Positions 3,646 through 4,356 of a stretch of DNA of 5,420 nt are shown one piece after another. Source of the stretch: Methylophilus sp. (GTDB taxonomy: Bacteria > Pseudomonadota > Gammaproteobacteria > Burkholderiales > Methylophilaceae); the NCBI GenBank assembly GCA_027489475.1, contig JAIXZQ010000183.1, positions 1 through 5,420 of the forward strand, given 5' to 3'. Numbering within the stretch: position 1 is the first letter of the stretch; each line of letters begins with the position of its first letter. A program made the translations under genes and the position numbers. The notes under the pieces were generated by a model. It made no database searches, had not been told where the DNA came from, and saw only the letters and a list, made by a program, of their open reading frames with translations.

Positions 3646-4356
3646 TTAAGCGCGCGTGGTATCTACGCGGTTTTTCATTTGCGACAAAGCAAGGCCGACT
3701 TGTTGTTCGTCTGCCACTTTGCGCTCATAGCTCTTTTGCACTTGTTTGCTACGCTCTTGCATCTGAGAGATGGCCAGCGCTGCAGCAGTGTCTTCTGCAC
3801 GACGGTTTCTCGCTTCAGGGGTTTTAGCGGCAAATGGATGCAACGCATCTTTGTACTGTTTCACCACATCAGCAGCTTTAGGCTCACGGTTCACCGCGGC
3901 TTTAATCGCAATCTTGGTGGCACGGTAGTTCCAATCTTGGATACGGTCGTCCATGTCGGCTTTGCTATCAATAAACACGCCCACACAGATAAACACATCA
4001 TCGGCTTCTTCGAGTGGAATGGTGCCGTCTGCGACACAATCCATCACCGCCATGGCCACACCGCGTTGTGCTGGACCAAACATTTGCGTGGCTTGACGGC
4101 CGTCTTTGATGGTCACCTTGTTAAACATCACGGTGTTGGGTTTAACCATCATGTTAGGCGCTGCAATCGCCAATAACCCGTTTACCCCTTGTTTTTGGTC
4201 GGTGAGCGTACGACAAAATGCGTCTTCTGCAGCGCTACCGCGTGGTCCCATAATCAAGTCGATATGCGCCACATTTTTCAAGTCCAAGCCAGAACCATCA
4301 GGGCGATCTTCGATGACCAAACCCTCGCCAATAAGTACACGATCAATCACTGCCAT
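3646..4356 (-). CDS. fae: Formaldehyde-activating enzyme (Fae) family protein with a C-terminal extension, inside a chemotaxis operon
   Basis: Classical Fae condenses formaldehyde with tetrahydromethanopterin in methylotrophs and is about 170 residues. Residues 1-177 of this 236-residue protein are clearly Fae: VAHIDLIMGPRGS (29-41) with the catalytic-type His31, KPNT (72-75), FNKVTIK (78-84), QMFGPAQ (91-97), EEADDVFICVGVFI (116-129), NYRATK (143-148) and HPFAA (173-177). From my memory of the family, it differs in a 9-residue insertion before His31, Arg98 where classical Fae has His, and Asp130-Ser131 where it has His-Trp. Residues 178-236 are an added charged, probably helical tail with a repeated LA(I/L)SQM motif. 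The ATG at 4356 has AGGAG 7 bases upstream. It sits between a receptor gene and cheR on the same strand. Family membership is firm. Classical enzyme activity is doubtful, and a role in C1 sensing or chemotactic adaptation is inference from the context. Confidence 0.9.
   Translation of the reverse strand: MAVIDRVLIGEGLVIEDRPDGSGLDLKNVAHIDLIMGPRGSAAEDAFCRTLTDQKQGVNGLLAIAAPNMMVKPNTVMFNKVTIKDGRQATQMFGPAQRGVAMAVMDCVADGTIPLEEADDVFICVGVFIDSKADMDDRIQDWNYRATKIAIKAAVNREPKAADVVKQYKDALHPFAAKTPEARNRRAEDTAAALAISQMQERSKQVQKSYERKVADEQQVGLALSQMKNRVDTTRA

What the first reader, a model, noticed from the sequence alone, without database searches (positions are those of the whole stretch)
3646..4356. A Fae-family protein encoded inside a core chemotaxis operon, between a receptor and cheR
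The gene is on the same strand as, and closely spaced with, mcp, cheR, cheD, cheB, cheY and cheZ, so it is probably co-expressed with them. The Fae family is known for handling formaldehyde in the H4MPT pathway, not for motility. In a methylotroph, a formaldehyde-binding fold made with the adaptation enzymes could let the cell sense or respond to C1 intermediates: a cytoplasmic, metabolism-linked input to chemotaxis. Fae paralogues beyond the classical enzyme are known in methylotrophs; I cannot tell from here whether this particular linkage has been described.
Basis: partly seen in the sequence, partly recalled or inferred. Interest (0 to 1): 0.85.

Follow-up and report, generated by a model that had tools for sequence, protein, structure and literature searches.

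The report
Formaldehyde enzyme inside chemotaxis operon
In Methylophilus and many Methylotenera bacteria the gene for the formaldehyde-handling enzyme Fae sits just before cheR in the chemotaxis operon, usually right after a receptor gene, and usually carries an extra end piece with a short repeated motif that was found on none of the other Fae genes examined; it likely still does its ordinary metabolic job, and the end piece is predicted to dock it to a partner, perhaps in the swimming-control machinery, for which no test was found.

Summary
ORF 3646-4356 (- strand) is a true Fae between an MCP gene and cheR-cheD-cheB-cheY-cheZ. The linkage is real and conserved, but already in print (PMC4109929, PMC3728764). 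Added here: (1) of 143 family genomes, 70 have the orthologous cheR and 46 of these have Fae directly upstream: 21/21 Methylophilus, 22/23 of Methylotenera genus g16, 0/22 in twelve other genera. In 7 of 12 representatives of those genera mcp is the next gene before cheR, so fae was most simply inserted once. (2) In 30 of the 46 genomes it is the only true Fae, with the active-site histidine kept, and its codon usage lies in the range of ribosomal genes and above every scored che neighbour (5 of 5 genomes). It looks like the working enzyme, not a dedicated sensor. (3) 27 of 41 linked Fae proteins carry a C-terminal tail with RRxxD and one or two A-[ILV]-x-[QE]-[ML]-[KRQ]-x-R motifs, under purifying selection; 0 of 66 unlinked Fae-family copies have the motif. 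Three relatives unlinked from che lack the tail, but so do one linked protein and, save a stub, 13 more. Best reading: the main Fae enzyme, made with chemotaxis, whose tail likely docks it to an unknown partner. A sensory role is untested.

The parts
3646..4356 (-). fae: Fae-family protein, 236 aa, ATG start
   Evidence: AlphaFold2 model (mean pLDDT 70.9) matches 1y60/1y5y, best E 2.1e-16, TM 0.76-0.79 by target length
3823..4356 (-). Fae catalytic core (residues 1-178), His31 at the active-site position
   Evidence: alignments; the role of this His is recalled from the Fae structure literature; dN/dS 0.014
3649..3822 (-). C-terminal tail (residues 179-236) typical of che-linked Fae; helix 187-235 predicted at pLDDT about 54-73
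   Evidence: dN/dS 0.164; model
3751..3783 (-). tail motif copy 1 (AALAISQMQER, residues 192-202)
   Evidence: dN/dS of both motifs together 0.087
3667..3699 (-). tail motif copy 2 (VGLALSQMKNR, residues 220-230)
4364..4368 (-). AGGAG Shine-Dalgarno-like sequence 7 nt before the fae ATG
   Evidence: read; similar in close Methylophilus relatives
4357..4408 (-). 52-nt mcp-fae gap; no promoter-like or terminator-like match on this strand
3577..3645 (-). 69-nt fae-cheR gap; AGGAT 6 nt before the cheR GTG; RNA folding not beyond chance here (z -0.95)
4409..5419 (-). mcp, C-terminal part (HAMP and signalling domain), runs off the window
2677..3576 (-). cheR
2072..2680 (-). cheD
977..2047 (-). cheB
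509..907 (-). cheY
3..512 (-). cheZ, runs off the window

Best explanation
The gene encodes an Fae with an intact catalytic core, likely the cell's main enzyme for joining formaldehyde to H4MPT, that most likely was inserted once between mcp and cheR of an existing chemotaxis operon and is predicted to use its extra C-terminal tail to dock to a partner. Shown: the place in the operon, its conservation, the kept core residues, the tail and the selection on it. Inferred: enzyme activity and high expression (from sequence and codon usage), and the single insertion (from the gene order of outgroups and the tree). Inferred and untested: that the tail binds something of the chemotaxis apparatus or another protein made with it, which would put formaldehyde oxidation near the receptors without Fae itself being the sensor. 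I give the enzyme part about 0.9 and the docking part about 0.35.
For: True Fae by curated cut-off; His31, Leu62, Lys80 and Gln97 invariant across 12 aligned Fae proteins including a piece of the M. extorquens enzyme, while the 15 Fae2/Fae3-type rows printed lack the VAHID motif (two in full). Only true Fae in 30 of 46 linked genomes and 16 of 21 Methylophilus genomes; the H4MPT-pathway gene mch is present in 12 of 13 genomes looked at. Codon usage within the leave-one-out range of ribosomal genes and above every scored che and mcp gene of the locus in 5 of 5 genomes. Directly upstream of CheR in 46 of 70 genomes with this CheR; in 8 of 13 genomes with this CheR but no linked Fae, an MCP gene is the next ORF before cheR. 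Tail motif on 27 of 41 linked Fae proteins and an RR stub on 13 more; motif on 0 of 46 unlinked copies and 0 of 20 further unlinked Fae-family proteins. The tail profile finds one strong match in each of 22 Methylophilus genomes and nothing else below E 0.03. Tail under purifying selection. Three unlinked members of the clade lack the tail; two of their genomes have no CheB.
Against: Thirteen linked Fae proteins have only the RR stub and one (L028) has no tail, so linkage does not need the motifs. One unlinked Fae outside the clade (L064) has an RR-type end. The motifs are not amphipathic beyond chance and have no recognisable relative. The three unlinked members form one branch, so tail absence with lost linkage is one event. 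A contact position that I recall as Thr (Thr82 here) is Asp in three of the 12 aligned Fae. The own MAG (80.8% complete) showed no mch and only one Fae. In M. mobilis the linked fae was transcribed much less than mmol_2056 and did not respond to in situ conditions (PMC3728764), which does not fit 'main enzyme' in a species with two such genes. No interaction was tested.
Confidence: 0.55

Rival explanations
1. Passenger: Fae is only the housekeeping enzyme; its gene happened to land at the mcp-cheR junction and stayed because the site gives suitable expression. The tail serves stability, assembly or nothing to do with chemotaxis.
For: Core is classical and often the only true Fae; codon usage unlike its neighbours; Fae kept without CheB in G084 and G097, che operon kept without a true Fae in G131; stem-loops after fae in many relatives suggest its message is handled apart from cheR; 14 of 41 linked proteins lack the motif.
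Against: Linkage kept in 21 of 21 Methylophilus genomes and in 22 of 23 g16 genomes that have this cheR; a constrained tail whose motif is on no unlinked Fae examined.
Confidence: 0.3
2. Sensor: Fae occupancy by formaldehyde or methylene-H4MPT is read by CheR, CheD, CheB or the receptor, giving the cell a cytoplasmic formaldehyde input to adaptation.
For: Conserved place beside the adaptation genes; the tail; published suggestion that Fae proteins may sense or signal (Kalyuzhnaya 2008 as cited in PMC3728764); in M. versatilis m301_0896, which that paper lists in a sensing/chemotaxis/regulation cluster, rose about 10-fold in sediment; formaldehyde taxis through a cytosolic receptor exists in Methylobacterium (PMC10613068).
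Against: In Methylobacterium aquaticum 22A a fae1 fae2 hgd mutant keeps formaldehyde taxis (PMC10613068); codon usage points to an abundant enzyme; 14 of 41 linked proteins lack the motif; no direct evidence.
Confidence: 0.15

Closest known systems
Classical Fae of the H4MPT pathway (M. extorquens Fae, PDB 1y5y/1y60)
   Same: 62% identical to the M. extorquens piece, above the TIGR03126 cut-off, same fold
   Different: Gene inside a chemotaxis operon; 58-residue C-terminal tail. (A 9-residue stretch before the His is extra against the GNEVAH-type Fae, but unlinked Methylophilaceae Fae share it.)
fae of the chemotaxis gene cluster of Methylotenera and Methylophilaceae isolates (mmol_1253; PMC4109929, PMC3728764)
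   Same: Same gene type; the linkage is described there
   Different: The passages I read do not mention the tail, the place between mcp and cheR, or the codon usage
Fae2 and Fae3 homologues
   Same: Same Pfam family
   Different: About 30-34% identical, lack the VAHID motif; which row is Fae2 and which Fae3 was not tested
MtpA formaldehyde-taxis receptor of Methylobacterium aquaticum 22A (PMC10613068)
   Same: Links C1 metabolism to taxis
   Different: It is a chemoreceptor, and formaldehyde taxis there does not need fae1 or fae2

Membership tests
Fae (formaldehyde-activating enzyme, TIGR03126 / PF08714) | Profile score above curated cut-off | tested here: met
   198 vs 118 bits; 208 vs 27 bits
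Fae (formaldehyde-activating enzyme, TIGR03126 / PF08714) | Active-site His and H4MPT-contact positions | tested here: met
   His31, Leu62, Lys80, Gln97 invariant, Asp33 in 11 of 12 rows; Thr82 present here, Asp in three rows; the roles are recalled, not from a call
Fae (formaldehyde-activating enzyme, TIGR03126 / PF08714) | Fold of 1y5y | tested here: met
   Foldseek best E 2.1e-16, TM 0.76-0.79 by target; model mean pLDDT 70.9
Fae (formaldehyde-activating enzyme, TIGR03126 / PF08714) | Condensation of formaldehyde with H4MPT | not testable with these tools
   needs an assay
Fae (formaldehyde-activating enzyme, TIGR03126 / PF08714) | Host has H4MPT-pathway enzymes | tested here: inconclusive
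   mch in 12 of 13 genomes (12 of 12 relatives); missing from the own incomplete MAG
Chemotaxis signalling protein | Conserved linkage to che genes | tested here: met
   46 of 70 genomes with this CheR
Chemotaxis signalling protein | Recognisable che domain or receptor-binding peptide in the tail | tested here: not met
   no Pfam or solved-structure relative of the tail (best E 0.11 and 0.4)
Chemotaxis signalling protein | Effect on taxis | not testable with these tools
   needs mutants

The most novel reading that the evidence does not exclude
The tail anchors the cell's only Fae to the chemoreceptor or adaptation complex, so that formaldehyde flux through Fae is a built-in input to chemotactic adaptation: a metabolic enzyme turned into a fixed part of the chemotaxis machine.
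Probability: 0.18. Interest if true: 0.85.

Novelty: new variant of a known kind. Interest (0 to 1): 0.48.

Why it matters
A signalling role of Fae proteins was proposed in 2008 (as cited in PMC3728764), and I found no test of it in the searches. A Methylophilus with one true Fae and a removable, selected tail makes it directly testable: enzyme function and tail function can be separated in one gene. If the tail docks to chemotaxis proteins, central C1 metabolism would be wired into taxis by a route not described in the papers found here.

Tried and rejected
Tail as part of other proteins: a profile of 14 tails against 22 Methylophilus genomes found one strong match each and only noise-level hits (E 0.037 and up) besides; one of these, in G048, was fetched and its ORFs listed, no more. 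A protein search on the tail gave one relative, itself a 236-aa Fae, among only 3 candidates, so it is insensitive.

Amphipathic helix: moments not above shuffles. Tail as a methylation-site mimic: considered, not tested.

Own promoter: no promoter-like or terminator-like match on the coding strand in either gap, but that scan cannot exclude one. Hairpin after fae: strong in 18 of 39 gaps, but not in the window or its close relatives L002-L010 and L065.

Linkage outside the family was looked for only in the 14 loci L068-L081 (none has CheR in the stretch held). A plasmid search listed 67 records with Fae; their neighbourhoods were not examined. Strict single origin of the linked label is not shown: the tree needs 2 changes, and 1 change holds in 30% of bootstrap trees. 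For that tree I left out 11 of the 14 rows L068-L081 (kept L068, L070, L076) and six near-copy Methylophilus rows L087-L092. G084's Fae was not in that tree; a quick FastTree placed it with L045 and L054 (0.998) inside the clade (0.89).

Full report
Observation. The ORF at 3646-4356 on the - strand encodes a 236-aa Fae protein by Pfam, NCBIfam and similarity to the solved M. extorquens enzyme. It lies 52 nt after an mcp gene and 69 nt before cheR, followed by cheD, cheB, cheY and cheZ, all on one strand.

Where it comes from. The window is contig 74 of an 80.8% complete assembly. Its nearest Fae relatives are Methylophilus (90% identity to Methylophilus sp. 13; 97% over 196 columns to M. rhizosphaerae). 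I read genus g1 as Methylophilus and g16 as Methylotenera because the Fae coordinates in G043 equal those of L005 (M. methylotrophus DSM 46235) and those in G079 equal those of L031 (M. mobilis 13).

Conservation of the linkage. Of the 80 loci kept (best of 328), 40 are linked: 39 with CheR within 1.5 kb downstream and L034 with only the MCP before its contig ends. An MCP hit lies within 1.5 kb upstream in 31 of the 40. In 143 genomes of the family (at least 85% complete, the own genome included although at 80.8%), 70 have a CheR matching the profile at 1e-90, and 46 of these 70 have Fae directly upstream on the same strand: 21 of 21 in g1, 22 of 23 in g16 (the miss, G100, has its CheR at a contig end and cannot be judged), 2 of 3 in g17, 1 of 1 in g8, and 0 of 22 in the other twelve genera. 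The Fae list used for this was cut by the tool at E 3.5e-59; I compared the later list of true Fae with the CheR positions by eye and saw no further linked case.

Direction of change. I fetched the CheR region of 13 genomes without linked Fae, one for each of 13 genera. In 8 of the 13 an MCP gene is the next ORF before cheR (7 of the 12 genera with no linkage, and G131 of g17); in G132 one short ORF lies between; in G141 a receptor-like end (by eye, no BLAST label) runs off the contig; G027, G031 and G021 differ. The simplest reading is that fae was inserted between mcp and cheR in an ancestor of Methylophilus and Methylotenera. The linked rows lie in one supported clade (100/90) of 47 rows that holds 45 linked and 2 unlinked rows (101 rows, after leaving out 11 of the 14 rows L068-L081 and 6 Methylophilus near-copies). 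Strict single origin of the label is not shown (2 changes; 1 change in 30% of bootstrap trees).

It is the enzyme. The 15 Fae2/Fae3-type rows from ten genomes are 30-34% identical and lack the VAHID motif. Counting only true Fae (profile A3, 1e-50), 86 of 143 genomes have one, and in 30 of the 46 linked genomes (16 of 21 Methylophilus) the linked gene is the only one; the second copy in G057 is a 147-aa frame and was counted as a second. Positions recalled as catalytic or H4MPT-binding are kept, except that a recalled Thr position (present here) is Asp in three of 12 rows. mch of the H4MPT pathway is present in 12 of 13 genomes looked at, missing only in the own, incomplete assembly.

It looks strongly expressed. 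Against a codon-usage reference made from the ribosomal-protein region of each genome, Fae scores 0.701, 0.667, 0.781, 0.640 and 0.687 in G041, G048, G079, G119 and G000. This is within the leave-one-out range of the reference genes each time (below their median in four of five), and above every scored che and mcp gene of the same locus each time (highest neighbours 0.637, 0.590, 0.651, 0.602, 0.626). The reference is mechanical: all ORFs of 60 aa or more on the main strand. The cut-off cheZ of the window was not scored, G119's locus has no labelled MCP, and a few unlabelled ORFs nearby score higher than Fae (0.759 in G041, 0.755 in G048, 0.718 in G119). In the window fae has AGGAG 7 nt before an ATG and cheR has AGGAT 6 nt before a GTG, so a difference in translation within one message could suffice. 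Published RNA-seq goes the other way for M. mobilis: mmol_1253 was transcribed much less than mmol_2056 (PMC3728764, passages).

The tail. After the conserved HPFAA, most linked Fae proteins continue with RRxxD and one or two copies of A-[ILV]-x-[QE]-[ML]-[KRQ]-x-R. Of 41 linked proteins (40 loci and the window) 22 have two copies, 5 have one and 14 none; of these 14, 13 have an RR stub and L028 has no tail. Of 46 unlinked Fae copies in the same loci, none has the motif, and one, L064, has an RR-type end. Of 30 further proteins from ten genomes, 8 of 10 linked have two copies and 0 of 20 unlinked (15 of them Fae2/Fae3-type) have any. A profile of 14 tails finds one strong match in each of 22 Methylophilus genomes and nothing else below E 0.03; 21 of these genomes are in the linkage count and the 22nd, G143, is also linked. 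Among 8 Methylophilus sequences dN/dS is 0.014 in the core, 0.164 in the tail, 0.087 in its motifs and 0.221 in the rest of the tail: constrained, less than the core. AlphaFold2 predicts one helix 187-235 at pLDDT about 54-73. The tail has no recognisable relative in Pfam or solved structures and is not amphipathic beyond shuffles.

Where che is gone. Three g16 genomes (G084, G095, G097; the last two are L054 and L045) carry a clade member away from che genes, beside a peroxiredoxin-like and, in two, a TypA-like gene (named by eye); all three lack the tail and group together inside the clade. G084 and G097 have no CheB at E 0.001; G095 has two CheB-domain frames of 961 and 207 aa but no CheR at 1e-90. 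Conversely G131 keeps the operon without a true Fae. So neither system strictly needs the other.

What is in print. [quoted passage not shown] methylotrophus ecotypes have one Fae each, and that one isolate has no true Fae. PMC3728764 (passages) places mmol_1253 in a sensing/chemotaxis cluster, citing Lapidus 2011, and cites Kalyuzhnaya 2008 for possible sensing or signalling roles; neither of those two papers was seen. I found no mention of the tail in the passages read, and a search for 'formaldehyde-activating enzyme' with 'C-terminal extension' found 0 papers. The library holds only open-licence papers. In PMC10613068 (passages) formaldehyde taxis of Methylobacterium aquaticum survives loss of fae1, fae2 and hgd.

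Verdict. The finding is real and the linkage already known. What is added here is the tail, the insertion site and the evidence that this is the working Fae. The most likely mechanism is an active, abundant Fae made with the chemotaxis proteins, with a docking tail for an unknown partner; a passenger gene is the strongest rival, and a sensor is possible but has least support.

Noticed in passing
L014-L022, L025, L028-L031, L033, L035, L041, L048, region after fae: Strong RNA stem-loops of differing sequence follow the fae stop in many relatives: z below -2 in 18 of 39 fae-cheR gaps against 4 of 40 mcp-fae and 3 of 37 cheB-cheY gaps. Not in the window or its close relatives L002-L010 and L065.
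   Followed up: partly
L126, L127, L128 (G097, G084, G095): Tail-less Fae of the same clade stands alone beside a peroxiredoxin-like gene (and a TypA-like gene in two; named by eye) in Methylotenera without this che operon.
   Followed up: partly
L124 (G131): Complete genome with mcp-cheR-cheD-cheB-cheY-cheZ and mch but no true Fae.
   Followed up: partly
L082-L086: A second true Fae type (GNEVAH) in some Methylophilus and Methylotenera genomes has its own, different C-terminal extension.
   Followed up: no
L132:4075-5595: An aldehyde dehydrogenase gene (PF00171) lies beyond the end of the che operon in G041, on the opposite strand.
   Followed up: no
L132:10754-12892, L136:6175-8796: Receptors upstream of fae have several HAMP domains in a row; the one next to fae in G041 shows no known ligand-binding domain in Pfam.
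   Followed up: no
L064:10001-10573: An Fae outside the linked clade and away from che genes in the stretch held has an RR-type C-terminal end.
   Followed up: no
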